This document shows, piece after piece, positions 16,907-38,455 of a stretch of 64,000 bases of DNA. Position 1 is the first letter of the stretch; every line of letters starts with the position of its first letter. Where the stretch lies: contig NW_026110795.1 in NCBI RefSeq assembly GCF_024679095.1, forward strand, positions 475,591 through 539,590, in the 5' to 3' direction. Under the pieces are notes generated by a model, which saw nothing but the letters and a program-made list of their open reading frames with translations, searched no databases and was not told the DNA's origin. The DNA is from Eriocheir sinensis (taxonomy: Eukaryota > Arthropoda > Malacostraca > Decapoda > Varunidae). Both the position numbers and the translations under genes were made by a program.

Positions 16907-17573
16907 CCCTCTCACGCACCGTAAGTTTCCAGTAAGTGTCTGTTACACTCACCATGCATTTCTCAGGCCCGACCGGCCTTTTTTTTTGCCGCCGCGATAC
17001 TCTACATTCCCGCACGTATTTTACCCTCACAGATATATCGTACCCCAATACATTTGGTATCAATGGCTTCATAAAGACTTGTACTAGAACATGTGCAAAT
17101 AAAAATATAGGAAAATAAACAATACAAACTGCTTTCAAGTCTCTGTATAGAGTACTGTAGACAATAAATCCTAAGTACCAACTCTTCCCCACTAGCTAGC
17201 TCGAAATTTTGAATGCCAACTTTTTTTAGCCGAATATATGTTTCGAAGCGGAATTTAGTGAGTATTCGTATGGTATCCTCAAAATCCTTATACGCCTATT
17301 AGTGTCCGAGTTACACCAAAAAAACTGTACTTTTTTCCTCTCCCGTCAGAGTAGGCTAACAACTAAAAATCGCTCAACACTCCTCATCTACGCTCCTTAG
17401 AAAGGTTGCCATATGTTACCATTAAGACACTTATCCCAACAAATGACGCTCCCAAATTTGATGCACTTTCACCGAAAACTTTATTTTTATTTTTTTATGA
17501 CGCTTTTCGCGTCATTGCGCGCCAGGACCTTTTACCCTTGATGAAGCGAAACTCGTCATCATGCGCGAGAGGG
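16907..17573. mobile_element. TTAA-flanked piggyBac-like MITE inside family C LINE
   Basis: TTAA at 16903-16906 and 17574-17577 flanks inverted ends CCCTCTCACGCA and TGCGCGAGAGGG. The host LINE reading frame resumes right after the second TTAA (KILKNDVLYALSGLN). The fuller C copy lacks this 667 bp segment. No transposase is encoded. Superfamily is inferred from the TTAA target and the CCCT end. Confidence 0.8.
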
Positions 17574-17577
17574 TTAA

Positions 17578-19215
17578 GATTCTTAAGAATGATGTTTTAT
17601 ATGCCCTCTCCGGCCTCAACTCTCAGAAGGCTTATGGACCTGATGGAGTGCCTCCTATTGTACTTAAGAACTGTGCCTCCGTGCTGACTCCCTGCCTGGT
17701 CAAACTCTTTCGCCTCTGCCTATCAACATCTATCTTTCCTTCCTGCTGGAAGTATGCCTTCATACAGCCTGTGCCTAAGAAGGGTAACCGATCCAATCCT
17801 TCAAACTACCGCCCTATAGCTTTATTTTCCTGTCTATCTAAAGCTTTTGAATCAATCCTTGACCGGAAGATTGAAAAGCACCTATTCACTTCTGACCTGC
17901 TATCCGATCGCCAGTATGGGTTCCGCAAGGGGCGTTCTACTGGCGATCTTCTTGCTCTCTTGACTGGCCCTTGGTCATCCTCTCTTAGCCGTTTCGGTGA
18001 AACTTTCTCTGTTGCGCTAGACATATCAAAAGCTTTCGATAGAGTCTGACACAAGTCTTTACTTTCTAAACTGCCCTCTTTCGGATTCTATCCCTCTCTC
18101 TGTTCTTTTATCTCTAGTTTTCTTTCCGGCCGTTTTATCTCTGCTGTGGTAGACGGTCACTGTTCTTCCCCTAAACCTATCAACAGTTTGTTCCACAGGG
18201 CTCTGTCCCATCACCCACTCTCTTCCTGTTATTCATCAATGATCTTCTTTACATAACAAACTGTCCTGTCCACTCATACGCTGATGACTCCACTCTGCAT
18301 TATTCAACTTCTCTTCTTCTCTCAACAGGAATCACAAGACTCCAGGCTAGAGGCTGCAGGACGTTTAACCTCAGACCTTGCTATCATTTCCGATTGGGGT
18401 AAAAGGAACCTTATGTCCTTCAATGCCTCAAAAACCCAGTTTCTCCACCTATCAACTCGGCACAATCTTCCAAACACCTATCCCCTATTCTTCGACAACA
18501 CTCAGCTGTCACCTTCTTCAACACTAAACATCCTCGGTCTATCCTTCGCTCAAAATCTCAACTGGAAACTTCACATCTCCTCTCTTACTAAATCAGCTTC
18601 CTCGAGATAGGGCGTTCTGCACCGTCTCCGCCAGTTCTTCTCCCCCGCACAGATGCATTCCATATATAGGAGCCTTGTCCGCCCTCGTATGGAGTATGCA
18701 TCTCACGTGTGGGGGGGCTCCACTCGCACAGCTCTTCTGGACAGAGGGAGTCTAAGGCTCTTGGTCTCATCAGCTCTCCTCCTCTTATTGATAGTCTTCT
18801 ACCTCTTAAATTCCGCCGCCATGTTGCTTCTCTTTCTATCTTCTATCGATATTTTCATGCTGACTGCTTTTCTGCACTTGCTAACTGCATACCTCCCCCC
18901 TTCCCGTGGCCCCGCTACACAAGACTTTCTACTCATGCTCATCCCTATACTGTCCAAACCCCTTATGCAAGAGTTAACCAGCATCTCCATTCTTTCATCC
19001 CCTTCACTGGTAAAAACTGAAACAGCCTTCCTTCAACTGTATTTCCTCCTGCCTATGACTTGACCTCTTTCAAGAAGAGTGTATCAAGACACCTCTCCAC
19101 CCGAAATTGACCTCTCTTTTGGCTACTCTGTACTTTTTCCTTTTGTGGGAGCGGCGAGTATCGGGCTTTTTTTTTTTTTTCCCTTGGGCCGCATCCTTTG
19201 TTAAAAAACATAACA
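17578..19215 (+). mobile_element. Family C LINE copy 1, RT and 3-prime part
   Basis: RT domain reads [56 protein letters not shown] followed by a TGA in place of Trp (18047), a decayed GVPQ box, [11 protein letters not shown] partly shifted (about 18276), then [34 protein letters not shown] (18680) and the C-terminal end around PVYDLTSFKKS (19060). It ends with the family poly-T/CCCTTGGGCC 3-prime UTR and an A-rich tail near 19205. Stops and frameshifts inactivate it. It was inserted into family D copy 1. Confidence 0.85.
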
Positions 19216-21692
19216 AATAATGCAAGACACGGTGAGTTGTCTGAATGAAATGTTGAAGGAGTGTGAGAGAATGATTATAATGGGTGATTTCAACTGCAAG
19301 GAGGTGCAATGGGAGGATTAGCAGACGCAGGGAGCAGACGATTCGTGGGAACATGTGCTGACTCAGTGGATCAAGGAACATACCAGATTCGGGAATGAAG
19401 GCGTGGCATCAAGACTAGACCTGGTATTTAGTAAGGAGCCGGAAACAATAGAAAATCTTAAAGTAGATTGTCCAATACCGAAGAGTGACCATGCGGTTGT
19501 GGAATTTGAAGTATCAGAAAAGAAAACGATTGACCGAAAGGAGGATCACAAAATTGGGAGAAGCAACTAATGTAAGGCAGAATTTGTTAGCATGATAACC
19601 TTTTTTTAAAAATGGAAATTGGAGTGGGCTGCACAAGGCCACGAGTACACAGGATAAGTGGGAGGAGCTTTTAAAGCTATAAAAGGAAGCCAAAAATAGA
19701 TATGTCCCCATGGTAACCAGAAAGGATGTTGATAAAAAAGGAGTTGTTTAACAAGAGATGCGAGGCAGCTAGAAAGAGAAAAGAGGAAGCTTGGAAGGGA
19801 TGGAGGAGACGAAGAAGAATCAACTCGTGGAACAATTTCAGACAAACAAGGAATGAATATACAAAGGTTAGAAGAAAATAAAAAAGGAAGTATGAAAAAG
19901 ATATAATCGATAAGTGCAAAAACCAACCCAAGCTGTTCTATAGACATGAGAACGGCAAATTGAAGAAAAGAGAAAAAATCTATAACTGAAAATGGATGGA
20001 ACCACATATGAGGATCCAGCAGAGATGGCAGAAGTGGTGAACAACAGTTTCCATAGAGTTTTCACAAAAAGAAGAAGGATTTGTACAACCCCTGGGCCAG
20101 GAAAGAGGAAGGGTTATGCAAGAGCTACAGTTAACGGTGCAGGAGGTGAAGGAAAGTTTGAACAAGCTGGATGTGAGAAAGGCGACGGGGCCGGATGGAG
20201 TATCAGGGTGGATCTTGAGAGAATGTAGTGAGCAACTTGCAGAGAAACTGCACTCCACAATGAGTGCCCCCCTGAGGGAAGGAAAAGTACCACAAGATTG
20301 GAAGAGAGCAAATATAGTACCGATTTTTAAGGGAGGCAAGAGAGAGGACCCATTGAATTACAGACCGGTATCACTCACTAGTGTGGTTGCGAAGATATGT
20401 GAGAGACTGTTTAAATATAGGTGCTCGGATTTTTTAGAAAGTGAGAAAATTATCTCGGATTGCCAGTTTGGATTCAGGAGAGGGAGATCCTGCGTCACCA
20501 ACTTGTTGTGTTATTACTCAAAGGTGACAGTTTCAATACAGGAGAGAGAAGGCTGGGCGGATGGAGTGTACCTGGATTTGAAAAATTCATTTGACAAAGT
20601 ACAGCACAGAAGACTAATTTGGAAAATTAAAAATAGGGGTGGAGTGGGTGATGGACTGATTAAGTGGCTGGAGGACCTCCTAACTAACTGGGAAATGAGG
20701 ACGATAATCAGGGACAGGGTTTCCAACTGGTGCCCTGTGATGAGTGGAGTCCCGCAAGGTTCAGTGTTGGCACCAATAGTTTTTGCTGTTTATATAAATA
20801 ATATGGTTGACGGAGTGTCCAGCTACGTGAGTTTGTTTGCAGATGATGCAAAGCTATTGAGACGTGTGAATAATGTGAATGACTGTGAGGCATTGCAAAG
20901 GGACCCGGATAGAATATGGGAGTGGAGTGGTACATGGCAGATGGAGTTCAACCTTGGGAAATGTAAAAAAATGGAGTTTGGTAGGAGTGGCAGAAGATGT
21001 GAATGTGATTGTAAGATGGGAAGTGAGATAATATGCAGAGTGGAGGAAAAAGATTTGGGAGTGACTGTCTCAGAGAACATGTCACCGGACAAACACATCA
21101 ACAGGATAACGGGACAAACTATGAATTTGCTAAGGAACATAAGGCCAGCATTTGTGTACTTGGATGAGGAGATGATGAGGAAAGTAATAGTCACAATGAT
21201 AAGGCCAAGGTTGGAGTATGCAGCAGTGGTCTGGTCTCCTCACGGAAAGAAGAACATAAAGAAGCTGGAAAGAGTGCAGAGAGTGGCAACTAAGATGGTA
21301 CCGGAACTTCGAGATCGGACTTATGAGGAGAGACTCAATATCATGGGGCTCACAACCCTAGAGAAGAAGAGAAAGAGGAGATCTGATAGCGGTGTACAGG
21401 GTGGCGAGCGGGGTGGAGCATCTGGACAGAGAGGACCTGTGTGTGTGGAACTAGAGAGAAAAGAGAGGACATGGAAAGAAGTTGAGGGCGACCACGTGTA
21501 GGAGATATCTGAAATAGTTTAGCTTCACAAATAGAACCATTGAGCTATGGAATAGACTGGAGGAGGAGGTGGTTTGTGCAAGAAACATTCAGGATTTTAA
21601 GGACAAGTTGGATAAGAGTGGATATGGAGACAGGACAGCGCGAGCATAGCTCTTTTCCCGTATGTCACAACTAGGTATATACAACTAGGTAA

Positions 21693-21695
<3 letters not shown>
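19216..21695 (+). mobile_element. Family D LINE copy 1, main body
   Basis: Continues the element begun at 16207. Endonuclease end: MIIMGDFNCKEVQWED then a TAG (19319), SRLDLVFSKEPE and KSDHAVVEFEV (the SDH active-site motif, 19485). A frame-broken linker follows, then a long RT frame and a 3-prime end with CAACTAGGTAAATAC (21681) that passes directly into an AC microsatellite. CR1/Jockey-like by motif order. Dead because of stops in the endonuclease and linker. Confidence 0.85.
20116..21501 (+). CDS. Reverse transcriptase frame of family D LINE copy 1 (partial ORF2)
   Basis: 461 open codons. Motifs in order: KATGPDGVSGWIL, NYRPVSLTSVVAKICE, CQFGFRRGRSCVTNL, VYLDLKNSFDKV (motif A, catalytic Asp kept, usual KKAFD altered), MSGVPQGSVLAPIVFAVYIN (motif B), SLFADDAKLL (motif C, FADD intact), EEKDLGVTVSENMSPDKHIN, RPRLEYAAVVWSP and ERVQRVATKM. 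The frame then slips at about 21370 and the true C-terminus lies in another frame (LWNRLEEEVV, about 21550). It makes cDNA primed from nicked DNA in active relatives. Upstream parts are broken, so it is probably not functional. Confidence 0.85.
   Translation: MQELQLTVQEVKESLNKLDVRKATGPDGVSGWILRECSEQLAEKLHSTMSAPLREGKVPQDWKRANIVPIFKGGKREDPLNYRPVSLTSVVAKICERLFKYRCSDFLESEKIISDCQFGFRRGRSCVTNLLCYYSKVTVSIQEREGWADGVYLDLKNSFDKVQHRRLIWKIKNRGGVGDGLIKWLEDLLTNWEMRTIIRDRVSNWCPVMSGVPQGSVLAPIVFAVYINNMVDGVSSYVSLFADDAKLLRRVNNVNDCEALQRDPDRIWEWSGTWQMEFNLGKCKKMEFGRSGRRCECDCKMGSEIICRVEEKDLGVTVSENMSPDKHINRITGQTMNLLRNIRPAFVYLDEEMMRKVIVTMIRPRLEYAAVVWSPHGKKNIKKLERVQRVATKMVPELRDRTYEERLNIMGLTTLEKKRKRRSDSGVQGGERGGASGQRGPVCVELERKERTWKEVEGDHV

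Positions 21696-21750
<55 letters not shown>
21695..21750. repeat. (AC)n microsatellite at a LINE 3-prime end
   Basis: About 27 AC units follow AACTAGGTAAATAC of family D copy 1 directly. Confidence 0.95.
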
Positions 21751-21751
<1 letters not shown>

Positions 21752-22988
21752 GGATGAAATCTCGGGACAAGTGCTAAAAGTGTAGAAATTAATTATTGGA
21801 GCAACTCTATGACATTATAACATGCTCTATAAATACAGCAAAAGTGCCCTTAGAATGGAAGAGAGCGAACACTGTACCAATTTAAAAAAGTGGAGATAAA
21901 ACTGAACCACTAAATCATAGACCAGTCTCTTTGACAAGTGTAATGTGCAAGATTTGTGAAAGTATAATAAAAAAAAAAACAATGGGTCGAACATTTAGAA
22001 AAGGAAAACATGATAAATGAAGGACAGTTTGGATTTAGAAAAGGGAAATCATGCATCACCAACGTACTATGTTTCTGCTCAAGAGCAATAGATGTGGTGT
22101 AAGAGAGATAAGGATAGACTTACTGTGTATATCTCAATTTGAAAAAAGCTTTTAACAAGGTTCCGCACAAAAGGTTGATCTGGAAACTACAGCAGTAGGG
22201 AGGAATGGGCAGAAAGGAAGGAAGAAAAATGAAGACGGTGATTAGGGAAAATAAATCAAACTGGAGGAGAGTAGAGAATGGAGTTCCTCCAGGCTCAATT
22301 CTGGCACCAATAATGTTCATATTATATATAAATGATATGTCGAAAGGTATAAACAGTTATATGAGCCTTTTTGCAGACGATCCAAAGTTAATAAGAAAAG
22401 TGAGGACGGAGGAAGACTGTGAAGAGCTGCAAAAAGACCTGGATAGAGTGTATAGATGGAGCCAGTTATGGGAGATAGAATTCAATGCAAACAAATGCCA
22501 TGTTATGGAAATGGGGAAAAGTAAAAAAAGACCCAGGAAAACATACAGGATGGAAGAAGAAAACTTTTTTTTTACAGCTATGGAGACAGTGCAAGGGCGT
22601 AATGGGAAAAAATAAAAAAAGGCCCGCTACTTACTGCTCCAGAACAGAGGTTAAAGGAGTGTTCGAAATCAGAGGTCAATTTCGGGAGGAGAGGTGTCCT
22701 GATACCCTCCTCTTGAAAGAGTTCAAGTCATAGGCAGGAGGAAATACAGATGAAGGAAGATTGTTCCAGAGTTTACCAGCGTGAGGTATGAAAGAGTGAA
22801 GATGCTGGTTAACTCTTGCATAAGGGGTTTGGACAGTATAGGGATGAGGATGAGTAGTTAAAGGTGGTACATGAAGAAAAAGATTTGGGAGTAACGATGC
22901 AAGGCACACTATCCCCCAGAAAAAAGAAAAAAAAAACATATAAACAAGCTGTTTGGAGAAACCTATAGGATGATGCAAAATATAAGGG
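21751..22988 (+). mobile_element. Family D LINE copy 2, degenerate and interrupted
   Basis: Plus-strand RT fragments begin at about PDEISGQVLK (21751), then QFGFRKGKSCITNVL (22025), VYLNLKKAFNKVPHKR (22128; both motif-A Asp positions are Asn), GVPPGSILAPIMFILYIND (22280) and SLFADDPKLI (22367). A 290 bp antisense family C tail is inserted at about 22565-22860. The D frame resumes as HEEKDLGVTMQ (22868) and ends at the terminal repeat of the large element at 22989. The Asp-to-Asn changes alone would kill polymerase activity. Confidence 0.8.
22565..22860 (-). mobile_element. Family C LINE 3-prime end, antisense insertion
   Basis: The minus strand reads TPYARVNQHLHSFIPHAGKL, then NNLPSSVFPPAYDLNSFKRR and SGHLSSRN followed by the C-family T-rich 3-prime UTR. 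It matches 60350-60610. It is a 5-prime truncated insertion inside family D copy 2. Confidence 0.85.
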
Positions 22989-23450
22989 TAGTACATGGGT
23001 CAGAGGGGCCCACCGTGCCCCCCCTCGAATTGACGAAACTACATTTTTCTGGTAGTAATATATGTATACTTTATTTCAAAACATGTTAACATGAAAATAA
23101 CTGGGACTCACTGCTTCATTTTCGATGTTATATGAACTCACATGTAAAAAAAATTGTGGCGGCCAGTTATGGGGTAGGGGATTTTCAAATGTCTGTATCT
23201 ATGGAGCTAATTATTGTAGAACTATAACTTTATGCTCAAAATGTGCGTCTTGGTCCATTCTACACATGGTTTATGCAAATTAGGTCAGTAAGTAGGTCAG
23301 CAGATGTCAAAATGTCGCTAATTATAGCCCATCCTTAAAATTTTTATCATGCCAATCTATTTCATCTTGGAGGTGCTAAATTCTGGATCGTGGCATATTA
23401 TCACCCCAAGAAATAAAGGATAGAGTCACCTGAAGTAAACAAAAAGTCTA
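22989..23450 (+). repeat. Left terminal inverted repeat of large element
   Basis: Matches the reverse complement of 30339-29195 with scattered substitutions. Shared blocks include GAGGGGCCCACCGTGC, AACTGGGACTCACTGCTTCA (right arm reads AGTGAGTCCCAGTTATTTTC reversed), CCCCTACCCCATAA and GGTGACTTTATCC. Confidence 0.85.
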
Positions 23451-25452
23451 ATGTTGCATGTAGTACAGTACTAGGTCATGTTTCTCCATTGAAAGATGAA
23501 AGTAACAAGGACAACCTGGAGTCCGTTGTGAATGACACAGAGTTCCGTTCATACCTAGACGAGTACTCAGTCTTCCGTGAGGGGGTTAATAAGGGTGACC
23601 ATGGGAAAACTGCCAAGTTTTGGGTGTCCTACATGAACCACATCTGGCTCATCCTGCATCTCCTCAAGGCTGTGAAGACCAATGACTATTACTTGTATGG
23701 CGCATGTCTCCATCAGATGACGGACCTCTTCTTTAGCTATGACGGACATAATTATGCCAGGTATCTTACCTATTTTTCGTTTTTTCTGGCAAACATTGAG
23801 CAAACACATCCCGGAGCAACAGAACTACTGAAACAGGGGGCCATAAGTGTGGCAAGATCATTTGTTCCGGGCAAGCGATGTTAAGTCAACAAGACGATTG
23901 AAGAGACTTTTATGAAGCATGCCAAGTCTCATGCAGGTGATGGAGGAAGAGGGGCAGGAGTCTCCAGTATCTTGACTAACTATGGGGCATACAGGAGATG
24001 GGCTAGAACAGCTCATGAACAGTCAAGATACGTGGATGTTACCCTCCAGATGGCAGAAATGACAGACTCTGAGACTGGGAGGACCAACAAGCATCACGAT
24101 GTTCGTCCATCCCAGATCCGTAAGAGCGAGTCAGTGGTAGTGAAAGTCATCAACTCCGTTCAAAGTTTCGTGAATCCATTTGATGTTGGCGATGTGGATC
24201 AACTATTCTGCCTTGCTTCAGGTGCCCTAAGCCTCCTGACATCAGTGACGACCTCTTGGATGCCGAAAAAAAGGGAAGCCTGGCAAAGGAAGAGCTCATC
24301 AAGGATAGGCTGATGAAAAACCAGGATTACTTCAAGCCAATCAAAAGGCAGAGACTGAAGACCTTTCAGGACATGGGCAAGAAGGTAACGGTCAAGACCT
24401 CCAAACTGAGAGAGCTTGAATACCAACAAGGGAATATTGCCTTCCAGCTATTGGTCCTGTCACAGAACCAGCCTGAGAAGCTAGATATGAAGGAAGTCCT
24501 CAGATATCCACTGATGCCGGTGCCATCTTCCATAGGTACTGCTGACGGCTACTTGATGAAAACGGACAAGAGCAAAGGCTTTCATCATTTGACCAGGCGT
24601 GTGGAGGATGTTGCTGCACCACCAGATCAGTGTACAATGAATACTGAGGATGGCAATGCCACTTTCTATTGTATGAAGGACGTGCTGAGGACATTCCACC
24701 AAACTGGCCAGAAAACACTTGACAAGAGTACAGCATGGAAATCGAAAGTCAATGCCAGCACAGACATGTACAAGAAGGACTCTGTCAAATCGATGGAAAG
24801 AAATAGAAGAGGAAGTTGGGAAAAGCGACTTTTTGAGGATGAAAACACAAGGAGACCGGAGAAATGAAAGGACTTCCTCGCCAATGATGAGAATAAGCAA
24901 CAGTTGGTGAGGCTACTTCTGAAGATCTGGAGTAGTCAGGATTGTGCTGAAAGACTGCGAAACAAGGAAATACTAGTTGTATGTGAAGGGAAGGCGTACA
25001 GTTTGGCATCAGATGGCAGGCCAGTTACCATGTCAGAAGCTCCAGTACTCTAATCAGGCCAGGAGGGGACAGATACTAGAGTTGTCTTGTACGTACTGTT
25101 CATATGCCGAAAGTCAGAAGTGCAAAACCGTACGAGTTAAGGCCGATTTACATTACCCGTCTTCCGACCGACAGGCAGACCGCCGGCTAGACGCCGTCAA
25201 GATTTCTTTCATGTATTTAAATGGAAGTGTTTACACTACCCGTCAAGCTGACGGCAGCAGTCGTCCGACACCCAACCGACACGTCCCGGATTTCCTCTCG
25301 AGAATTCCTGGCCGGCGTGACGGCGGCCTGACTCCGGCTCGACGGGTGGGTGACGGGTAGTGAACGAAGACCCGTACGGTACCCGTTCATCTCGCGGCTT
25401 GTACGTGTTGCCTCGTCCGCGCCCATAACATTTTAATTCATTTTCCGGCACC

Positions 25453-25580
25453 ATGGACGAAAGACTGATAGAACTCGTCCGTGGCCATGAAGAGCTCTAT
25501 GATATGAGCAACAAGAAATAGCGATAATCTACATAAGGACAACATATGGAAAGAAATTGGAGAGGAAATAAACAAACCAG
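25453..25580 (+). pseudogene. MADF (Myb/SANT-like) DNA-binding ORF start of the Harbinger element
   Basis: Starts MDERLIELVRGHEELYDMSN, the usual opening of a MADF domain, then meets a TAG at 25519. Shifting frame by one restores DNLHKDNIWKEIGEEI and a GTGAGT donor at 25580. Harbinger elements carry such a second protein that helps bring transposase to DNA. The frameshift makes this copy inactive. Confidence 0.7.
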
Positions 25581-25615
25581 GTGAGTGTGCCAGAAGTTTA
25601 TTAGTAGCTACACCT

Positions 25616-25984
25616 TCACTCCCAGGGCAGTGCTCCAGCAGGACTGTTGAAAAAAGCTTTGAATTTTTCCCTTACATTGAATGCAGCCTGAGGAGCATTT
25701 CCACCTTGCCCATGCATATTTATCAGATTGTTCTGACTGTGTTGTGAATCATTGCCTTTGAAATCTGCAAGGTTGTCATCCCTAATGAAATTATGTAAAA
25801 GGCAAGTAGCATACACAATGACATTAGCATTTTCAGGATCTAAATTAAGTGTTCTTTGGTAAATCAAGAATTTGTGACTCAGAATGCCAAACGCATTTTC
25901 TACGACTCTTCTCGCACGTGAGAGTCTGTAATTATAAGCTCTTTTCTCATTGTCATCAATCTGTGTACCTGGGTATGGTCTCAT
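25616..25984 (-). pseudogene. Harbinger transposase, C-terminal fragment
   Basis: Minus-strand frame with NEKRAYNYRLSRARRVVENA then FGILSHKFLIYQRTL and CLLHNFIRDD, the standard C-terminal part of PIF/Harbinger DDE transposases (the last acidic residue lies in the RVVENAFG helix). The first two catalytic Asp residues would lie in the deleted part between this and 26160. Confidence 0.85.
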
Positions 25985-26159
25985 CAGTAGAACTTATACG
26001 GGATTTAGAGCACTTGCGATTAGCTTGTACTTTGTTAAGAAACTTCAGTTTATATTTCTTTTGAGAGCTTAAAATCAAGAAGCAACAAGATTTAGTTATA
26101 TGAGATCCTCCAATATTTTCTTCAAGTAAAATGGATACAACATCTACAGATTGTTTAAC

Positions 26160-26474
26160 TTACCTTAAACAAACTGCCAGCCTTTCTTTTGCAGGTATTG
26201 CTTCTCGGCATGTAGTGTTCATCTTTGTCAGGTCCATCTCTATTTTCTGCAGTAAGTAACTGAACTTAGCCTTGGACATCCTGAAGTACTGGTAGAACTT
26301 CACTTCATCATCTGACAGCTCTTTAAACAGGGTCCAGAATTCTCCCTCGGACTTCCTTTTCTGCAGAGACTGGTGCACCCACATTCTCTTCCTCTTTCCA
26401 CTGCGTTCTTCATCCTCTTCTTCTAAAAGCAAAGCAATCGCTGCCAAAGTCTTGATGCTGAGAGGGCGAGGGGC
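26160..26474 (-). pseudogene. Harbinger transposase, N-terminal fragment
   Basis: The minus strand from Met 26474 reads MAPRPLSIKTLAAIALLLEE, then ELSDDEVKFYQYFRMSKAKF, YLLQKIEMDL and AIPAKERLAVCLR, the conserved N-terminal helices of PIF/Harbinger transposases. The frame runs into a stop soon after, where the internal deletion begins. Confidence 0.8.
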
Positions 26475-26706
26475 CATGATGCTCACGTGACAGCAGCTGC
26501 GTGAGCACTACGAGACAGAGATGGACGGACCGAGAACGTGTCGTGTAAATATACAACAGTCTGACGGCGTCTAGCCGGCGGTCTGCCTGTCGGTCGGAAG
26601 ACGGGTAATGTAAATCGGCCTTTAGGAGCCCTGACACAGACATCTACTTCAATTAGCTTAATTAGCTTAATATCGCCCAATTAGCTTAACATCGGTTATA
26701 GGGAAG

Positions 26707-27501
26707 ATGCTGGAGTCCATAATAGCCAGGAACATTCGGGAGCATTTAGAGAAACATAGCAATTCACGACTCGCAGCATGGGTTCACAAAGGTAGGTCAT
26801 GCCTCACCAATCTCTTGTCCTTCTACAATAAAGTATTTGAGGCGGTTGACAGAGATGAAAATTATGATGTAATCTATCTTGATTTTAGTAAAGCGTTTGA
26901 CAAAGTTCCTCACCAACGACTGTTGCTTAAATTACAGGCTCACGGAGTAGAGGGTAAAGTTTTGAACTGGGTCAAGGCGTGGCTTAGCAATAGGAAGCAA
27001 AGAGTGCAAATCAATGGTAAAAGATCTGACTGGGGATGTGTTACGAGTGGGGTCCCACAAGGTTCGGTATTAGGTCCACTTTTGTTTATTATTTATATCA
27101 ATGACTTAGACACAGGAATTAGTAGTGATGTTAGTAAATTTGCAGATGATACCAAGATCGGTAGAGTAATTGAGTCGGATCAGGACGCTAGTATTCTCCA
27201 AGGTGAACTCAACAGATTATATGACTGGGCGGATAAATGGCAGATGGAGTTCAATGTAGGGAAGTGCAGTATTCTGAGTGTAGGTAGGAACAACCCCTCA
27301 CATAACTATTGCTTAAATGACACTCTCATAAGTAGGTCTGGGTGCGAGAGGGATTTAGGGGTCTTAGTGAGCTCTGATCTCCGTCCAAGGGCACAATGCA
27401 TTCAAGCTAGAAATCGAGCTAATAGGGTACTGGGATTTATTTCAAGGAGCGTAAGCAACAGAAGCCCCGGTCTTCCTCAAACTATATTTAGCATTAGTTA
27501 G
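26707..27501 (+). CDS. CR1 reverse transcriptase, longest intact frame
   Basis: 264 codons from fingers through palm. DFSKAFD and FADD are both intact. The segment before GRSCLTN reads RLAAWVHK where DSQHGFTK is expected, a local out-of-frame patch between two indels. After about residue 250 (RSVSNRSPG) a one-base shift ends the frame; the thumb region continues in the next frame at 27500-27949. Confidence 0.85.
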   Translation: MLESIIARNIREHLEKHSNSRLAAWVHKGRSCLTNLLSFYNKVFEAVDRDENYDVIYLDFSKAFDKVPHQRLLLKLQAHGVEGKVLNWVKAWLSNRKQRVQINGKRSDWGCVTSGVPQGSVLGPLLFIIYINDLDTGISSDVSKFADDTKIGRVIESDQDASILQGELNRLYDWADKWQMEFNVGKCSILSVGRNNPSHNYCLNDTLISRSGCERDLGVLVSSDLRPRAQCIQARNRANRVLGFISRSVSNRSPGLPQTIFSIS

Positions 27502-27547
27502 ACCTCATCTTGACTATGCGGTTCAGTTCTGGTCACCCTACTATAGA

Positions 27548-27949
27548 ATGGATATCAAAATGTTAGAATCGGTGCAGAGGAGGATGACTAAGATGATTCA
27601 GGGGTTGAGAAACTTGCCATACGAGGAAAGACTCAAACAGTTAAACTTGCATTCTCTAGAAAGGCGAAGGGTGCGTGGAGACATGATCGAGGTTTATAAA
27701 TGGATGAAGGGCTTTAATAAGGGAGACATTCATAAGGTTTTGTTGGTAAGAGAACCGGGTAGGACACGAAGTAACGGGTTTAAACTGGATAAATTCAGAT
27801 TCAACAGGGACATAGGCAAAAATTGGTTTACTAACAGGGTGGTGGATGAGTGGAATAGGCTTAGCAGTCATGTGGTGAGTGCCAATACAATTGTCACATT
27901 CAAAAATAGACTAGATAAATTCATGGACAGCGATATTAGGTGGGGTTAG
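27548..27949 (+). CDS. CR1 ORF2 C-terminal region (frameshifted continuation)
   Basis: Reads DIKMLESVQRRMTKMIQGLR, LHSLERRRVRGDMIEVYKWM, FKLDKFRFNRDIG, WNRLSSHVVSANTIVTFKNR and stops after DSDIRWG. This is the normal C-terminus of CR1 ORF2, including the TFKNRLD motif. A related antisense copy is at 47913-48266. Confidence 0.85.
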   Translation: MDIKMLESVQRRMTKMIQGLRNLPYEERLKQLNLHSLERRRVRGDMIEVYKWMKGFNKGDIHKVLLVREPGRTRSNGFKLDKFRFNRDIGKNWFTNRVVDEWNRLSSHVVSANTIVTFKNRLDKFMDSDIRWG

Positions 27950-29194
27950 ATACACGGGAGCTTAGGGTCAAAGGAGCTGCCTCGTACAGGCCTACCGGCC
28001 TCTTGCAGACTCCTGCGTTCTTATGTTCTTATGTATGTTCATTCTGTTGTATTATGCTCCAGCCTTTGGGATACAAATCTTGTTCGACACTGGGTCTGGA
28101 GATCACCGACGACTGATTGATGTGTCAGAGATGGCGAAGGACTACATGCTGACTTATTGCTCTGATCTGCTAGGTTTGCACGCCTTCACAAGATGTGATA
28201 CTAGGAGTGTGTTCCATGTTATTGGGAAAGTGAAACCAATTAAACTGCTTCAGGAAAAGCCAAGGTTTCAGGAGATTTTCAACAAACTAGGCGAGAAATG
28301 GGAGGTTTCGGATGAACTATTTGCGGGCCTAGAGGAATGTACGTGTGCAGTGTACAAGAAGACTGATCGTATCTCTGACGTTGACGAACTCCGGTATGTC
28401 ATGCTGCTGTCCAAGTGTGGTGGTAATTGAGGCGAACTGAAATTGAAAAGAAAGGTTGATCTTGCGACCCTTCCACCTCCCAAGAAATGCCTGAGAGAAC
28501 ATGTGAAAAGGGTCAACTACCAAGTTGGGATTTGGAAAAGGGCCCATGTACCAAAGCCGGAGATCCCACAGCCAACAGACGATCATGGGTGGAAGAAATC
28601 AACAACGCATACTGGATTGCAGCCACAGTGGTGTGTTGGGGACGTTGTTCCACCCAAGATGGCAAACATCCTAGAGAAGCAACAGGACCAAGACTCGAAT
28701 GATGAGGATGATAACTCGGAATCGGAATCAGACAGCAGCGGTGCTGTGGATGAGGATAGCTCAAGTAGTGACAGTGATTGGTAGAGGGGGAGGCCTGCAA
28801 GATGTTGTGACCTTCTTGCTGGATTAAACTCATCAATACCTCATTGGAATATCCTGTATCGATCTAAGGTTCTGACTGATGAGACTCTCTTTGCTGAACA
28901 TATGAACATCTGCAGGGTGTTTTACAACCATACCGAATTTTAAGCTACTGCCGTTAGCCATGAGCTTCTGACCTCTGGTGACCTACTCAACACCATAATT
29001 TGTATATATCACACACCAATATACAGTATGTGTAGTTGCACACATTGATTGTAAATTTGAAATTCTGCAGTAAACAGTTATGGAGTTAAGAACATTTAAA
29101 GTTATCCTGCCCCTTTATTGCAGTTTTTCACTACTTTTTTTAGAAACGTCATTTCGTCACTTCCCACTGAAGGGTACAATGCTGAAATATGTTT

Positions 29195-30339
29195 AACATT
29201 AGGCCTTTTGTTTACTTCAGGTGACTTTATCCTTTATTTCTTGGGGTGTTAATATGCAGGATCCAGACTTTAACCCTCCTGCTCCGGGCGTCTTTCCAGA
29301 AGGCGAACCCAGTGTCCGGGGGTTTTGGGAATATTTAGGGTCATGTCTACATTCTAATTGCAACGTAAATAAACATAATGGAAATTAACCATAAACTACG
29401 TACTTCTAGGAGTAATCATCATCCTCTGTCGAATGGCGTTTAGTAGACCGCTCTAGGTCCACTGGTTGCTGAGTAATCATGAGTAGAAGTTGGTCACTTT
29501 TTTGCCGTAGAACTAGCCCGCGTTCGGGTGTGTGCCTGTGACACGGGCGAGAGTCTAACCTACACTAATCGCTCCCCGTTCCACTCCGCTCCGCTTTACG
29601 CTAACCCCACCAAGACTTCTGTTTCCTAACATTTATATTTCATTGTGGGAGCGTCGGGCGGGTGGAAGCGAGGAAGCAACGTCCCCACGGTACAGGAAGG
29701 CACACGTTCGGACACATCGGAAAGTGAAAAATCATGTCCTTCCATCACTGCGGCGAGTGACCAACTAACTGGTAATGCCAACACATGCTCTGGGATGCTG
29801 GGCGTGGGCTCATACAAAACTAAGCCCGCGCGCACATTTCAAATGGTAGAAATACGCACATGCCTTCTGGGAGGACACCCGGATTTTTGCCAAATTTTAT
29901 GCGCGTTCTTCCAAGAGGAGACCCGGAGCGGAGGGGTTAATACCTACAAGATGAAATACATGGCCATGATAAAAATTTGAAGCATGGGCTAAGTTCAGCG
30001 ACATTTTGACCTCTGCTGACCTACTTACAGACCTAATTTGCATAGATCATACACCTTTGTGTAGAGTGGACCAAGACGGACATTTGGAGAGTAAATTTAT
30101 AGTTCTACGATAATTAGTTCCAGAGATACAGACATTTGAAAATCCCCTACCCCATAATTGGCCGCTACAATTTTTTAACATGTGAGTTCATATAACATCG
30201 AAAATGAAGCAGTGAGTCCCAGTTATTTTCATGTTAATATGTTTTAAAATAGAGTATACATATATAACTACCATAAAAAAAATGTAGTTTCGTCAATCCG
30301 AGGTGGGGTGCACGGTGGGCCCCTCTGGCCCATGGACTA
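29195..30339 (-). repeat. Right terminal inverted repeat of large element (split by a MITE)
   Basis: Parts 29195-29273 and 29937-30339 together mirror 22989-23450. The 663 bp between them is a later TTAA-flanked insertion, because the left arm has no equivalent. Confidence 0.85.
29274..29936. mobile_element. TTAA-flanked piggyBac-like MITE in the right TIR
   Basis: TTAA at 29270-29273 and 29937-29940. Ends CCCTCCTGCTCCGG and CCGGAGCGGAGGGG are inverted with a small mismatch. The left arm of the host element (near 23370-23390) shows the uninterrupted target. Its GC-rich interior has no transposase. Confidence 0.8.
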
Positions 30340-30475
30340 TAGGTGATGGCTGAGTGGTTAGCGTGCGGGCCCTGCATTCACCGCGTGCTGGACGACGCGG
30401 GTCTGAATCCCCACACTACCACCTGGGATTTTTCAGTCTCCGCCGAGTGGCCTAAGACTACCCACATGCTGTCCT
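30340..30475 (+). mobile_element. tRNA-derived SINE (family S), head portion
   Basis: GGTGATGGCTGAGTGGTTAG resembles a tRNA A-box region and GCGGGTCTGAATCCC a B box. It is followed by the SINE body words CCACCTGGGATTTTTCAG, CCGAGTGGCCTAAGACT and ACATGCTGTCC. It abuts the large element and runs into LINE sequence. It is a fossil Pol III unit, not a tRNA gene. Confidence 0.75.
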
Positions 30476-30479
30476 GTCT

Positions 30480-31560
30480 AGAAGAAACCGACCCAAAATT
30501 TTATATAGACATATAAATAAGATATTATGGAAAAAAAGACACTGTGAATGCAATCAAAGTGAGTGACCAAGTCTATGAAGATGTAAAGGAAATCTGTGAA
30601 ATATTAAATGAAAACTTTCAGAAGGTGTTTACCCAAGAGACAAAATTTGAAGAGAGGGATGAGGAGAGAAGTGTCAAAAGAATGAAAAACATAAGTGGAT
30701 GAAGAAGAGATACTGGGGCTATTGAAATCAGTAAATGGTAAGAAGGCAATGGGTCCAGATGAAGTACGTATCAGGCCAAGTACTGACAGAGTGAAGGGAA
30801 CAGTTAATAGAACCAATTCATGATGTTGTAAGTTGTTCAATCAAGACTGAAGAAGCCCCAGTACAATGGAAGAGGGCACATGTGGTCCCATTATATAAGA
30901 GCAGAAATAAACAAGAGCTGCTGAACTATAGACTGGTTTCTCTTACAGGTGTAATGTGCAAAATGTGTGAGAAGGCAATTAAATAAAAGACAGCTGGAAA
31001 GAGAAGATAATAAATGAAAGTCAATTTGGATTCAGACAAGGTAAATCTTGTGTCACAAATCCAGTATGTTTTTACTCAATAATAATTGATATAGTACAGG
31101 AGAGAGACGGATGGACAGACTGCATATTTTTGGATCTAAAAAAGTCATTTGATAAAGTTCCACATAAGAGGCTGCTGTGGAAATTAGAAAATAGAGAAGG
31201 ATTGGGGAGATATATGACAGAATGGATGAAAAATTACCTGGCAAACAGAGAAATGAGAACCATGTTGAAAGATGAAAAATCGGACTGGAGAAAGGTCACA
31301 AGTGGAGTGCCACAGGGATCAGTGTTAGCGCCTATATGATGTTTTTAATATATAGAAATGATATGCCAGAAAAAGTAAAGTTAGTACATGAGTATGTTTG
31401 CAGATGATGCCAAACTGCTTAGAAAATAAGATATGAGGATCATTGTACTAAACTCAAGGAAGATTTAAATGAGACATGAATGGAGTAAAAAATGGGAAAT
31501 AGATTTTAATGAAAAGAAATTGAAGGGCATGGTGACATGTGGCAATCCACCATACATGAC
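30480..31560 (+). mobile_element. Family D LINE copy 3, heavily decayed
   Basis: Scattered plus-strand matches: DPKFYIDI (30490), WKRAHVVPLYKSRN (30868), LNYRLVSLTGVMCKMCEKAI (30920), LDLKKSFDKVPHKRLLWKL (31130), KSDWRKVTSGVPQGSVLAPI (31277-31337) and a shifted FADDAKLL (31396). Stops are frequent. The 3-prime end is missing. Confidence 0.75.
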
Positions 31561-33530
31561 CCAGGTCTAAAAACTGATCAGTTTAGCTTATCCTCTCTGC
31601 CTCTGTCTCTCTCCCCCAGTGTGTGGGATTGTAAAGAAGGCTGATAATGTGTACAAGTGTGGCTATTCAATTCTTCCCTTTTCCTTGGGAGCATCAGGGC
31701 TGGGTGCCAGGTGTCACAAGTAGATGTATGTTGTTACCAAAAGCACCCGGTCACACTTCTGTTTGCATGAGTGAAACACAAAAATAGTAGCGGCTGCATG
31801 CTTATGAGAGGAGGATGGCAATGTAGTACTTAGCATATTGTCATCATAGTCTCATACTTGGTCCATATTTAGCCGTTTCTCAGCCACTCATACCTTCACG
31901 TTGGCTGAAGCAGACAGATAAAGACAGATAAAGACTTCAATGGACCTCCTTCTTTATTTGTCATTTTTTTCTCTCTTTCTAGTCATGGTGGTTGTGACAT
32001 CAACCAAATTATAGTTAGAGAAGATGTTTTTTGTGACAGTGTAGTTGTGGATCATGATTTGGTTATTGGCCATGACCACTCCTAGGTCAGAGTTGCTACC
32101 CTTTAGTAAGGCCGCAGATATTTGGAGCGCTAGCTTGGATCTGGTGAAGCAAAACAAGCAACCCAAGACTGCAGGCGAGTCTCAAAGACTTCAGAGTCCT
32201 TGGGGAGATCCCTATAGTGTGGTGAAGTGCCTCTACGATTCTACATGTCACTTAAGGGAAAGATGGAATCATGTGAGGCAGCTGGGGAGGTGCCACAGAC
32301 CTGTCCCAATACATGTGTAACACAGGAGGTCACATGTCAACGAGAAGGGGCAGCCGATCCTTGGGAACAAGTGAACCAGTGACAACTCAGAGCTCTCCAC
32401 AGGAGTTTGCTGATAGCTATCATTGGATGTCCGGTAGGCAGTTGAGGACTGGAGAGCCCAGCATCGCACTGAGACAAGACGGATGATTAATAGACTAAAT
32501 TTGAAGAATAATGTTTTCTAGACTGTACACAATACGTATTGCATCAAGACAACTCAATTATGAAGGAAGGGGTTGTGTTATGCCACTGCATTGTATTAGT
32601 TCTAGGAAGTTATGGTACTCGACTCAACTAGTCTTCACTATTCACATGCATACCTTACTGAAGCCCTTGAGAAAGAATTTGGGTGTATAAGAGCTAACAC
32701 AGGTAGGGCAGTCAGTCAGCGAGGGACTCAGAGAGAGAGAGAGTAGAGGACGAGGCAGAGGAAGACCCAACTATAGTCTGTTTCATAAAATATTACAGGC
32801 AGTCACACCACCTCTTTTTTCACTTGATTTTGATTAGCTCTGTGGCAGCCAGTCACCGCACAGAACCTGCCACTTTGCGACCACCTTGACCGCTGGCATT
32901 GCAACTCTGTGCAATGTTTTTTAGTATTCTAATACTGTCTAGAATACTGTTTCCCTAATAGCATTGCCATCCTGGAGTCATTATCTATAACACTCGTTCT
33001 ATAACACAAGATGACTAATTATTTTTTCTCATAGATATCATGTGATGAATGAAGATATTTTTTTACATGATAAAAACAAGTTTATATTTCCATCTTTATT
33101 CATGTTAACAGCATAGTTATGGCTATTTTTCTTGTCCCATCATAAAATTTGACAGTTTAGGCACTATACATGTTCAGTGGAAAAATTGCGGTAAGTTAAT
33201 ATTTCATAGTGATACTGAGGTGTAAAATATTTTTCTTCATGTATTCCAGAGCACTGTGAGGTAGTGTGAGCACAGAGCGAGCTTCCTGGGCCAAGCAACT
33301 TTCTCAGCGCGGTGATTGGCTGCCACTTGGCCAGGCAAAATTGAAGAGCATGAGGGTGTGTGGCCGCCTGTAGTATCCAAGTGAAACAGACTATAATTAG
33401 GATGAGAGAGGTCAGTGATACAAGACTCAGCATGGATCAGGAAAGGCAAGGACATTCCCAGACTTCTGATTGTGATTGTTGCTGTGCTGAAGCAGGAAGA
33501 AAGACCACTGTTTGCCTCCCTGCATTTCTG
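31561..33530. other. No recognised gene or element
   Basis: About 2 kb without a recognisable exon, RNA gene or repeat. Short open stretches near 32045-32469 have no family signature. A GAGAGAGAGAGAG run lies near 32731. Confidence 0.4.
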
Positions 33531-33534
33531 GATC

Positions 33535-34110
33535 TGGATCTGGATCTGGATCTTAATGTGCAGGGCGCCTGTACAGGTGCATAACACGCATATTTGTGTT
33601 GGCTGTTGGGGGGACGGGGAAGCTGGGTGTGCAGGGGAGGGAAGTGAATAAAGTGTAATTGCTAGTGTTGGTGTGTTGTGGTGACAAGTGCGTGTGTACT
33701 TGTTTTCTGAATGAGTCTATTGTACCGCAGTCTAAAATCTATTGAGGGAGGCTGTTCCAGTCATGTATGGTGCGTGGAAAGTATGAGTGCTTGTATGCGT
33801 CAGTGTTATTATGATATGTTTGGTATTTATGGATGTGTGTGTTATGAGTACGTTGACTGTTTGCGTTGTGTAAGTATGTATGTGAGTCAATGTCAATGTG
33901 AGTATTTGTGATCTTGTACATAAGTGTAAGTCTGTGTGCTTGTCTGCGTATGTGAAGAGGTTCCATGTTTATTTGTTGTTTTATCCTTGTTGTGATTCCA
34001 GGCGTTGGCGTGTAATTGTTTGTAATGAGCCTAGCCGCCTTGGTGTTGATTTGTTCTAAGCTATCAATGCTTCTGTGTGTGTAAGGATCCCACACCGTGG
34101 AGCAGTTTTC
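33535..34110 (-). mobile_element. LINE 3-prime end (family J), copy 1
   Basis: The minus strand reads MWDPYTHRSIDSLEQINTKA, TRIKQQINMEPLHIRRQAHR and SYFPRTIHDWNSLPQ, the C-terminus of a Jockey-like ORF2. It ends in a GATCCA repeat (33530-33555) as a 3-prime tail. It is 5-prime truncated. Confidence 0.8.
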
Positions 34111-34589
34111 ATCACCTCCTGCTGGATACTGTTAAGTCTCCAGGGTGTGAAGGCCCACAGAACCCACTTGAAGCACACATGAGAACCCACAGCCCACCTA
34201 CTGTAAGATGCAGTTGGTGTCAGGAACAGAGCTACGTATGTTGCACTTGGTCTCAGTGGTGCAAATATCAGTTAACCTGCACTATTACACACCTTAAATA
34301 TAACGAATTTAGGCTTTAACAAACTTTTGGGGCCAGTCTTGGTGTATACAGGGATTCACCGAGCAAACTCAGTAAGTGTGTGGTTCAGTTTGGTGGTGGT
34401 GCAGCTGAGCAAGTAGACACACGTTGATTGGCGGCGGAGGGAACTAAACAGCCAGGCGGTGTACGTGTGTTTAATAGTGACTCTCAGTCTAACTTTATCC
34501 ACCCAACTGTAAACACCTTTGCTCTCATCCTTCTGTACCTCACCTCGCATCTAATACAAAGAACAAACTTTGTTACATAACGATTTTTA

Positions 34590-34920
34590 ATTTTTTTTAC
34601 GTCTTAGCCTATAGCACTGGTACGCTTTCTTCAGGGGCCTGGTGGTCAGTCTAAGCCCGTCATGGTGCAGGCATTTTTTGTTTGTTTATAGTGGCCCCAT
34701 TTATGCTTGGCTCATGCCGCCCCAGAGCTCATTCTTGATTCACTGGACGGTTTCTTCTAGAGTCCGGGTTGATAGGTGATCTTCAGGACAGCATGTGGGC
34801 AGTCTTAGGCCACTCGACAGTGACTGAAAAATCCCAGGTGGTAGCGGGCGGATTCGAACCGACATCGTCCATGGCACGGTGAATGCGGAGCCTGCATGCT
34901 GACCACTCAGCCACCGCCTA
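34590..34920 (-). mobile_element. SINE family S, near full length, antisense
   Basis: Reversed, it starts GGCGGTGGCTGAGTGGTCAG, has a B box GGTTCGAATCC (at about 34855), body words as in the copy at 61050, and a 3-prime end near 34580 with TACGTAAAAAA-like tail. Confidence 0.8.
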
Positions 34921-35111
34921 CCCTGTAAATGGTTCGAACTAGCGAACTTTCAGTTCATGAAACGTGTAAGGTTCATTGTATTTAAAAAGGTTGGATCCCT
35001 TGGATATAACAGTTTTTTGGATATGATGTCACCTCCACTCTCCCAATTGGTTCATTAAAGCGAGAATTTAATGTATGTAACAGTGGTGTCATGAGTGAGG
35101 ACCACTACTTA

Positions 35112-35340
35112 CTTACCAGGCAGTGGCTGAGTGGTCAGCATGCAGGCACGACAACCAGGAGGACTGAGGTTCACATCCACCAGCTACTACAAGCTGGCAC
35201 TTTTCAGTTATTGCTGAGTGGCCTAAGACTTCTCACATTCTGTCCTGAAGACCACCTATGAATCTGAACTCAAGATTCTCTCTAAAATGAGGATCAAAGA
35301 TGAGCTCCGGGGGACATAATTAGCCAAGCAGGATGGCGCC
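35112..35340 (+). mobile_element. SINE family S, 3-prime truncated
   Basis: GGCAGTGGCTGAGTGGTCAG head, degraded B box (GAGGTTCACATCC), TTGCTGAGTGGCCTAAGACT, CCTGAAGACCACCTATGAAT and AGGATGGCGCCACTA. It stops where an RTE fragment starts. Confidence 0.75.
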
Positions 35341-35344
35341 ACTA

Positions 35345-36155
35345 TGTGTGAAACTGAAGAGAAGGAGCTAGGTGTTCTACACCAAACTCAACTCTGTATT
35401 GGACCGGTGCCCCCTTGGAACATATTCATTGTCTTTGGCAACTTCAGTGCTACTACTGGCACTAACAGGGTTGGTTGTGATCCTGGCTTGGATCCTGAAG
35501 ATCCAAGAGGCTAAGAATTGCAGGTTCTTGGTACCAAAGACCAGCGCTGCACTGCTGGACTTGATATATCAGTGCCAGAAAGGTGTCTAAGGAGATCTAC
35601 CACATCCTTGTAGGCAACTGGAGAATCCTCCAGAACTGTAGGGTTTCATGTAGTGTTGAGTTCTTTGCAACTGATTATTTATTTTAGGCTTGTTGTTGCA
35701 ACCCTCAAGCTTCACTTCAAATCAAGAATCTCGAGATGCAGCAATACTGTGGTCCTCGAGAGGCTGAAATACCTGGCATGTGCTAACCAGTACGTAGCGA
35801 CAGTCTCAAATTGGTTCAATGTGCTCAGCACCCTTGAGGACCCTGCAGAACTATGGGATAAATTTTGATGTGAAATTGATGTGAGTGCATTGGAGAGCGC
35901 CTGAGATCTAGGAGAGGTTTTGCCTCGGGGGAGTTGCTGAAGAATATTGAGGAGAGTCGCACTGCCAGGCTTGCTGGAAATCGGGACCAATTTAAGTCTC
36001 TGTCGCATAGGACTAGAGCTCTCTTGAGGAGCGACAAGGAGAGGAATGTCAGGAGTCTTCCTGAGGAAGTCAAGGGTCATCTCAATGCATATGACCACTG
36101 ACCTGCTTACCAAGCCCTGAAGCAGCTCTGCTCCGAGCCTCCCGCTTAGGTGAGC
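35345..36155 (+). mobile_element. RTE-type LINE, endonuclease/linker remnant
   Basis: Frame-hopping matches to an RTE endonuclease: FYTKLNSVLDRCPLG (35373), a shifted GDFNA-type stretch, QRPALHCWT-like, LVVATLKLHFKSR (35695), YVATVSNWFNVLSTLEDPAELW (about 35795), ARLAGNRDQFKSL (about 35960) and LLRSDKERNVRSLPEEVKGH (about 36025). RT itself is absent. Many indels; inactive. Confidence 0.65.
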
Positions 36156-36575
36156 ATTGTCCGAAAAGTATATGATTTCATATTTCTGATTCAAATCATA
36201 ATACATATATACATCTTTAGCATCTTATAATATTACATTCACTATATGTAACTTTAAATGAACAACATAGAGCATGTGACAGTTGCTTATGTGGGAAAAA
36301 ATGTATTTAAATTTCCTATATCTTTCATTTCTCCGTTTCTTAAATACTATTAGTACATAAGTCAAGTGTCTTTATATCGTAGCTATGAGAAAAATGTGAT
36401 TTCTTAATAATAGCAAAAAACTAGTAAGAAAAATTACTTGAACGTACGCCGCATGCATATTAGTTTTGGTAGTTCCACCAGGGCCACCAGATGGCAGGTA
36501 GTGTTCAGTGAAGGACCCAATATAAGAGGTAGGAAACTGCTAGTAATAGAAAGAGTTGATGAGATGAAGAGCCTT
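36156..36575. other. No recognised feature
   Basis: AT-rich sequence; neither strand holds a recognisable exon or repeat. Confidence 0.4.
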
Positions 36576-37400
36576 TGACTCCACTCTGTCTAGTAAGACT
36601 ATGTGTGGAGCACCCCCACACGAGATGCATACTTCATACGAGGACGGGCAAGGCCCCTGTATATGGACAGCATCTGTGTGGGGGAAAAGAACTGGCGGAG
36701 ACGATACAGAACGCCCAACCTCGAGGAAGCTGATGTAGCAAGAGAAGAGATATGAAATTTCCAGTTAAGATTTTGAGTTGAGGATAGACCAAGGATGCCT
36801 AATGTAGAAGAAGGTGACAGATGAGTGTTGTTAATGAAGAATAGTGAATAGGTGTTTGGAAGATTGTGTCGAGTTGATAGGTGGAGAAATTGAGTTTCTG
36901 AGGCACTAAAGGACACCAACTTCCTTTTGCCCGAATCGGAAATATAAGCAAGATATGAGGTCAAGCATTATGCAGCCTCCAGCCTGGATTCACGCAATTC
37001 CTGTGGGGAGAGTCTTCTGTTAAATGATGTTGAGTAATGCAGTCATCAGCATAGGAGTAGATAGGACAGTTTGTTATAGAAAGAAGATCATTAATAATTA
37101 ACAGAAAGAGTGGAGGATCGGACAGCCCTGCGGGTCACCACTGTTGATAGGGGGAAGAACAGTGACCGTCTACCACAGCAGAGATAGAACGGCCAGAAAG
37201 GAAACTGGAGATGAAACTACAAAGAGAGGGGTAGAAACAGAAGGAGAGAAGTTTAGAAAGCAAAGACTTAAGTGCCAGACCTTGTCGAATGCTTTTGAAA
37301 TGTTTAGGGCAACGGTGAACGTGAAAGTTTCACCAAAACGTCTAAGAGAGGAAGGAGGGGGGAGCATAAAAAGCTGGGCGAGCAGGCAGACATGACCTGA
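36576..37400 (-). mobile_element. Family C LINE copy, antisense, RT fragment
   Basis: The minus strand reads SSLRRFGETFTFTVALNISK and AFDKVWHLSL (37340-37270; motif A Asp changed to Asn in ALNISKAFD), a decayed motif B and C, then [20 protein letters not shown] (36925) and RLGVLYRLRQFFSPTQMLSI (36720-36660). It is truncated at both ends and inactive. Confidence 0.8.
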
Positions 37401-37439
37401 CACTTGACCCATGGTGTCCACTCGCCGCTGCAAACAATG

Positions 37440-37700
37440 GCCAGGGCATACTTGCAGTTGTAGTGCAGTGACTAGCCTGATGGGGGAGCCCTGCTCCCAT
37501 AACTCGCGTACTCTGTTAGGGGGGCTACCTCTTTGGCCGACTGGTTAAGGAGTGGCTTTCCCGCCTCGCTAATCCCGGGTTCGATCCCCGCCGGCAAAAC
37601 CTTTCTTTATTTGGATTAATTTATTATCGTGTGTTTCGTTACACGCGGTTGTCGTGTTGGAGTGTAGTAAATAGTAAATTCTGGTGTTTCACAGTGTCAA
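37440..37700 (+). mobile_element. tRNA-like SINE family T, copy 1
   Basis: Head TTGTAGTGCAGTGACTAGCC, then a tRNA-like part CTTTGGCCGACTGGTTAAGG with B box GGGTTCGATCCCC (37579), and tail words GGATTAATTTATTATCGTGT and GGAGTGTAGTAAAT. It differs from family S. Confidence 0.7.
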
Positions 37701-38130
37701 AGGGTGCAGAGGAGCTGACAGAGAGGAAATAAGGATATGTGAATTGAATTCTGCAATAAGAAGATAAACACCACATTGGCGAGTTTGCAGTTTGCACTTT
37801 ACAGAGAGAGAGAGCAGGAGCAGTCTGAAGAGAGCACAGAAAAGCATGCACGTACGTATATTCATAAACTATACTGTGATGCAACGAAAAATATCTGAGT
37901 CCTACGGAACCGAAGGGAAATAAGTGTATAAGAGTTGTTCATGTGCTACTTTCTTTCGCCCCCATTTTCGTCTATTTGTTTTAATATTATTGTTACAAAT
38001 TCTTGATAACATGATGCAGAATTTTCTCAGGAAGACGATGGCGACTTCCGTTTTCTTAATAATGAATGGTGGTGTCAGGAAACGGGGTGGGAGTGAGGTG
38101 TGTGAAGCCGTCAGTTTTTGGATGAATCGG
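37701..38130. other. No recognised feature
   Basis: No exon or repeat is recognised. Open stretches on both strands near 37902-38237 have no family signature. Confidence 0.35.
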
Positions 38131-38139
38131 GTACAGTAA

Positions 38140-38455
38140 GATGGCCGATACCCCAGCTTCGGCGGCGGCACCTGCAAGATCTCGGCGCGCACTCTAACAC
38201 GTGACTGTGGCGTGACGTCATCAAAACATTGGCTCACTCAACGTGACGTGAAGAAGACGGGGCGAGGAGTCGAGAAGGTGCTGGCCCTCACACACTCTGA
38301 AGACCCCTCGACAACAACACTCACCAAGAAGATCAGACCCAAACAAGCACTGAAGAAGAAGTGAGAAGTTTTAGAGGCCGTGGTCCCAGCCCCCCGAGGC
38401 ACTGAAGAAGCGCGCCCTAGTGGCCCTCTACTGGTAGCCAACAGCCTGGACACAG
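38140..38455 (+). promoter_or_regulatory. Possible promoter plus non-coding first exon with CRE
   Basis: A locally GC-rich segment contains a perfect CRE palindrome TGACGTCA (38213-38220) and a half-site CGTGACG near 38240. Downstream a purine-rich transcript-like stretch without a long reading frame ends at CACAG|GTAAGT (38455). The combination resembles a first non-coding exon with its promoter. No downstream exon is identified, so this stays a suggestion. Confidence 0.35.

What the first reader, a model, noticed from the sequence alone, without database searches (positions are those of the whole stretch)
22989..30339. Long-TIR element carrying an uncharacterised, possibly PIN-like nuclease protein
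Seen: about 460 bp inverted repeats exactly bracket one coding region. Established, from memory of the family: proteins with the same ordered blocks (YDxxNYARY, STDMY..SIKSMER, DTRVVLY, SPDSD, LLGLHAFTxCDT, NYQVGIWKRAH) are numerous and unannotated in invertebrates. Inference: they are the main protein of a TIR transposon whose catalytic core is a PIN/FEN-like fold, unlike DDE or tyrosine transposases. The TIR-protein link would explain their abundance.
Basis: partly seen in the sequence, partly recalled or inferred. Interest (0 to 1): 0.82.

Follow-up and report, generated by a model that had tools for sequence, protein, structure and literature searches.

The report
Truncated Academ-like transposon with flap nuclease
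This is a dead, front-truncated copy of an animal jumping gene whose full-length relatives appear to join a standard DNA-cutting transposase to a DNA-repair-type flap nuclease, a combination that probably belongs to the already named Academ transposons.

The parts
22989..23468 (+). left terminal inverted repeat, about 480 bp; begins TAGTACATGGGTCAGAGGGG
29942..30339 (-). right terminal inverted repeat, outer part; ends ...CCCATGGACTA
29182..29270 (-). right terminal inverted repeat, inner part, separated from the outer part by an insertion
29270..29940 (.). TTAA-flanked insertion with GC-rich inverted ends (piggyBac-like MITE, inferred) inside the right arm; the split of the right arm is seen in all 11 copies
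23504..24226 (+). coding homology, first segment; starts at residue 811 of P0105, inside the DDE-like module; contains the TIEET motif
24208..25116 (+). coding homology, second segment in another frame: DGN, STDMY..ERNRRG, QEGTD, DTRVVLY; start of the FEN-like nuclease
26624..26650 (+). short coding remnant RSPDTDIYF between the two inserted elements
28035..28784 (+). coding homology, last segment: LLGLHAFTRCDT ... NYQVGIWKRAH and acidic tail
25139..26622 (-). nested PIF/Harbinger element, 61-bp perfect TIRs, TTA flanks, DDE_Tnp_4 match; absent at this place in the C4 and C1070 copies
26651..28034 (+). nested LINE fragment with reverse transcriptase (ends approximate)
17170..40321 (.). duplicated unit that carries the element: C1070 aligns from 17170 to 40034 (94-97%, with gaps), C4 from 20819 to 40321 (95-97%, with the Harbinger/LINE gap), C432 from 12480 to at least 31131 (99%)

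Best explanation
The feature is a degenerate, N-terminally truncated, non-autonomous copy of an Academ-type (AcademX-like) cut-and-paste DNA transposon. The intact protein of the family is one chain of 1.5-1.6 thousand residues: N-terminal Cys/His (probably zinc-binding) region, winged-helix-like region, an RNase-H/DDE-like transposase module with an insertion before the last E, then a FEN/XPG-type 5' nuclease. Most likely mechanism: the DDE module recognises the TIRs, nicks the ends and joins them to the target; the FEN-like module cuts or trims the flap, hairpin or non-transferred strand made at the ends or at the target gap. Shown here: TIRs, motifs, nuclease fold of relatives, conserved acidic sets, truncation, pseudogene state, duplication. 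Inferred: DDE catalysis, zinc binding, division of labour, the Academ name, loss of the front half by internal deletion. This locus itself no longer works.
Confidence: 0.72

Rival explanations
1. Pack-type element: an unrelated long-TIR element captured the rear half of an Academ-like gene; TIRs and protein do not belong together.
For: Coding homology begins about 36 bp downstream of the inner end of the left TIR (23504 with P0105; from 23450 with one of nine queries, P0137), in mid-domain. No copy with the same TIRs and a full-length protein was seen (33 matches, 11 pairs, a lower bound). The middle 3.7 kb of the split C2140 copy was not fetched.
Against: The fragment keeps the orientation and runs to the C-terminus with its acidic tail, ending about 400 bp before the right TIR, as a deletion derivative would. 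Whether other gene fragments lie between these TIRs in the other copies was not tested.
Confidence: 0.2
2. The family is a separate, undescribed superfamily that pairs a DDE-like transposase with a FEN-type nuclease, not Academ.
Against: DDE plus nuclease is what AcademX is described to have (that the nuclease is of XPG type is recalled), and Academ is reported as common in bivalves, where this family has relatives (Solemya, Pinctada).
Confidence: 0.2
3. One reading: TIR transposon whose only catalytic core is the PIN/FEN nuclease.
For: The window copies contain only the rear half with the nuclease.
Against: Full-length relatives carry the conserved DDE-like module in front; the window copies are pseudogenes and give no sign of independent transposition.
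Confidence: 0.05
4. Domesticated host gene flanked by unrelated inverted repeats.
For: Some family members are recorded as hypothetical proteins of animal genomes.
Against: The ten copies examined are all broken; the phylogeny is patchy.
Confidence: 0.03

Closest known systems
Academ superfamily, AcademX lineage (Repbase; Kojima)
   Same: TIR DNA transposon; one long protein; DDE-like transposase plus nuclease; element size and presence in bivalves fit
   Different: Sequence identity to Repbase Academ entries untested; TSD not seen here; the window copy lacks about the first 800 residues, including both Asp of the DDE-like set
FEN1/EXO1/XPG/XRN 5'-nuclease superfamily
   Same: Fold of residues 742-1107 of P0022 and ordered acidic set
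   Different: Fused behind a transposase-like module; sequence identity 7-16% in the 50 listed alignments
hAT transposase (Hermes)
   Same: Best fold match of the N-terminal half, residues 448-904 of P0161 against 147-576; D481 near the start and E900 near the end of that range
Pfam DUF6589 (PF20231)
   Same: Overlaps the DDE-like module; above cutoff in P0177 and P0222
   Different: Below cutoff in the matches (P0005, P0046) and absent in most of the 20 relatives

Membership tests
Academ (AcademX) | DDE-type transposase module | tested here: inconclusive
Academ (AcademX) | XPG-type nuclease in the same protein ('nuclease'; 'XPG' recalled) | tested here: met
   FEN/EXO1/XPG fold and acidic set in relatives; in the window copy the acidic motifs are still readable, with EE changed to EG
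Academ (AcademX) | 3-4 bp target-site duplication | tested here: inconclusive
   The 11 copies share one insertion site, and its right flank does not continue the left LINE
Academ (AcademX) | Terminal inverted repeats | tested here: met
   about 480 bp, 88-90% between arms
Academ (AcademX) | Sequence homology to curated Academ transposases | not testable with these tools
   Repbase not held; PMC7165386 not held
FEN/XPG 5' nuclease superfamily | PIN-like fold with FEN-type extensions | tested here: met
FEN/XPG 5' nuclease superfamily | Metal-binding acidic residues in order | tested here: met
   eight conserved acidic columns; correspondence to FEN1 positions is recalled
hAT | hAT dimerisation domain and 8-bp TSD | not tested
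   No TSD available; no hAT model reported at E <= 1 for the 20 proteins, which is not a test of distant membership
KDZ / Plavaka | Pfam KDZ or Plavaka transposase match | tested here: inconclusive
   No such match reported at E <= 1 among the 20 relatives scanned; HMMER's filters drop most weak matches

The most novel reading that the evidence does not exclude
The animal-wide family is an undescribed transposon superfamily in which a hAT-like DDE transposase and a flap-type 5' nuclease act as one enzyme, the nuclease replacing the host or hairpin step for second-strand processing at the transposon ends.
Probability: 0.2. Interest if true: 0.6.

Novelty: new member of a known kind. Interest (0 to 1): 0.3.

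Why it matters
It offers an explanation for an abundant set of mostly unannotated proteins, found here in sponge, soft coral, mollusc, arthropod, sea cucumber, amphioxus, hagfish and fish records, as a DDE-plus-flap-nuclease transposon protein. It gives confident models and a residue list for testing why a transposase would carry a FEN-type nuclease. The locus also warns that TIR copy number can come from segmental duplication, not transposition.

Tried and rejected
Rejected: counting the 11 TIR pairs as independent insertions (same junctions and flanks; one copy, L016, lacks a few bases at its left end). Rejected: a missing N-terminal half elsewhere in the window or in loci L001-L025 (chance-level hits only). 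Rejected: an intact copy among the ten examined. Led nowhere: Pfam on the window pieces (nothing convincing for this protein), NCBIfam on 4 relatives (none), profile search of PDB sequences (none), scans of viral contigs and prokaryote genome contigs (patterns matched but no relative). Paper searches: searches returned no paper; others (12 of 231 listed) listed none that by title or abstract start describes this protein family; one search's single paper, PMC10380557, holds 'XPG nuclease' and a word beginning 'academ' and was not opened; none of the 12 papers holds DUF6589. Passages only were read of PMC10045372, PMC10294476, PMC9587614, PMC10799480, PMC9783078 and PMC3627910. Not achieved: protein search of the own genome for full-length copies, so pairing of the TIR with a full protein and TSDs remain open. 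A fold or family not listed is not excluded. An earlier reading of mine, that the catalytic E is the E of the 'EAGL' motif (E701 of P0161, 74 of 77), was replaced by E900 because the Hermes alignment runs from about model residue 449 to 904 against Hermes 148 to 576, so that Hermes D180 and E572 (recalled) would fall near D481 and E900; both E columns are conserved, so this choice is inference.

Full report
What is there. Two inverted arms of about 480 bp bound 22989-30339. The right arm is split by a TTAA-flanked insertion of about 670 bp. Between the arms lies a broken coding region: homology runs 23504-24226, 24208-25116, a remnant at 26624-26650 and 28035-28784, in changing frames with four in-frame stops. 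A Harbinger element and a LINE fragment are nested in it.

Copies. The genome holding the window (1.77 Gb, 2158 contigs) was searched with the left TIR: 33 matches, which sort into 11 pairs of arms on 10 contigs, the window's own included; the tool calls such counts lower bounds. I fetched stretches around all 11 (of the split C2140 copy, both ends only). For 10 with both ends in one stretch, flanks of about 760-820 bp on each side of the 9 others match the window at 93-99.9%; pairwise over 700 bp, flanks are 94-100% alike (45 pairs). L016 lacks a few bases at its left end. The eleventh (C2140, outer ends 14.2 kb apart) has the same two junctions. Three copies were followed further: C4 aligns from window 20819 to 40321 and again at 47716-49894, C1070 from 17170 to 40034 with gaps, C432 from 12480 to 31131 (several of these ends are only the ends of what was fetched). 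Arms within a copy are 88.5-92.6% alike, while left arms of different copies are 92.8-99.5% and right arms 95.9-100% alike (10 copies), as expected if one old insertion was later duplicated. So these copies give no evidence on the mobility of the TIRs, for or against.

The protein. The nearest relatives are in Nymphon, molluscs, Palaemon, a fish and unnamed contigs (83 proteins at E <= 1e-3 among 7,991 candidates scored). A second search from a longer relative gave 170 of 7,992, many of 1,530-1,630 residues in one ORF, and a third, with the nuclease part of a Pinctada relative, 278 of 5,620, including sponge, soft coral, sea cucumber, amphioxus and hagfish (the best 120 listed in each of the last two). 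Two hits are labelled as symbiont MAGs of Candidatus Thiodiazotropha; host clam contamination is my inference. Of 174 protein entries held (P0098 itself and a short window piece included), 45 align to P0098 with outermost ends before residue 120 and beyond 1450. In the 10 copies tested, the window's included, homology starts at residue 803 or 811 of P0105, and the first 800 residues have no match at E <= 0.1 in loci L001-L025.

Relation to known kinds. Pfam gives DUF6589 over the DDE-like part: 2 of 8, 3 of 12 and 5 of 6 relatives, the last picked because of DUF6589 or CXC labels; above its cutoff in two. A DDE transposase joined to a nuclease is the description of the AcademX lineage: in passages of PMC10045372 AcademX is said to make 3-4 bp TSDs and the two Academ lineages to encode helicase and nuclease; a passage of PMC3627910 names RecQ helicase in Academ. 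That the nuclease is of XPG type is recalled. Passages of PMC10294476 report Academ as frequent in bivalves with curated elements of 5,565 bp on average, which fits the length of this family's ORF. I therefore file the family, with moderate confidence, under Academ; the TSD test and the sequence comparison to Repbase are open.

Phylogeny. A 24-row tree puts the window with Nymphon (95/89) inside a group with Palaemon and two metagenome rows (100/100), hagfish with Solemya (100/99), and two fishes with a Pinctada copy (100/100). This patchiness fits a mobile family; the window row fills only 34% of the columns.

Verdict. The larger claim, a non-DDE transposon driven by that nuclease, is not supported, because the copy is the rear half of a longer protein that most likely joins transposase and nuclease. 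The find is probably a dead member of a known superfamily.

Noticed in passing
window 25139-26622: PIF/Harbinger element with 61-bp perfect TIRs, TTA on both sides and a DDE_Tnp_4 ORF on the minus strand; absent at this place in the C4 and C1070 copies, so probably a younger insertion.
   Followed up: partly
window 29270-29940: TTAA-flanked insertion with GC-rich inverted ends inside the right TIR; the split of the right arm is seen in all 11 copies.
   Followed up: partly
window 30340-30476: tRNA-like SINE (tRNA likeness by eye) starting at the right end of the element; other copies at 34920-34784 and 61053-61182.
   Followed up: partly
window about 17170-40321: Large segmental duplication; its middle part is found 11 times on 10 contigs, twice on contig C571 about 150 kb apart.
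   Followed up: partly
window 1741-2139 (-) and 7937-8329 (+): Two similar ORFs in opposite orientation that resemble ionotropic glutamate-type receptors (motif recalled, no search made).
   Followed up: no
window 52245-53859: Long repeated, GC-rich stretch open in several frames on both strands.
   Followed up: no
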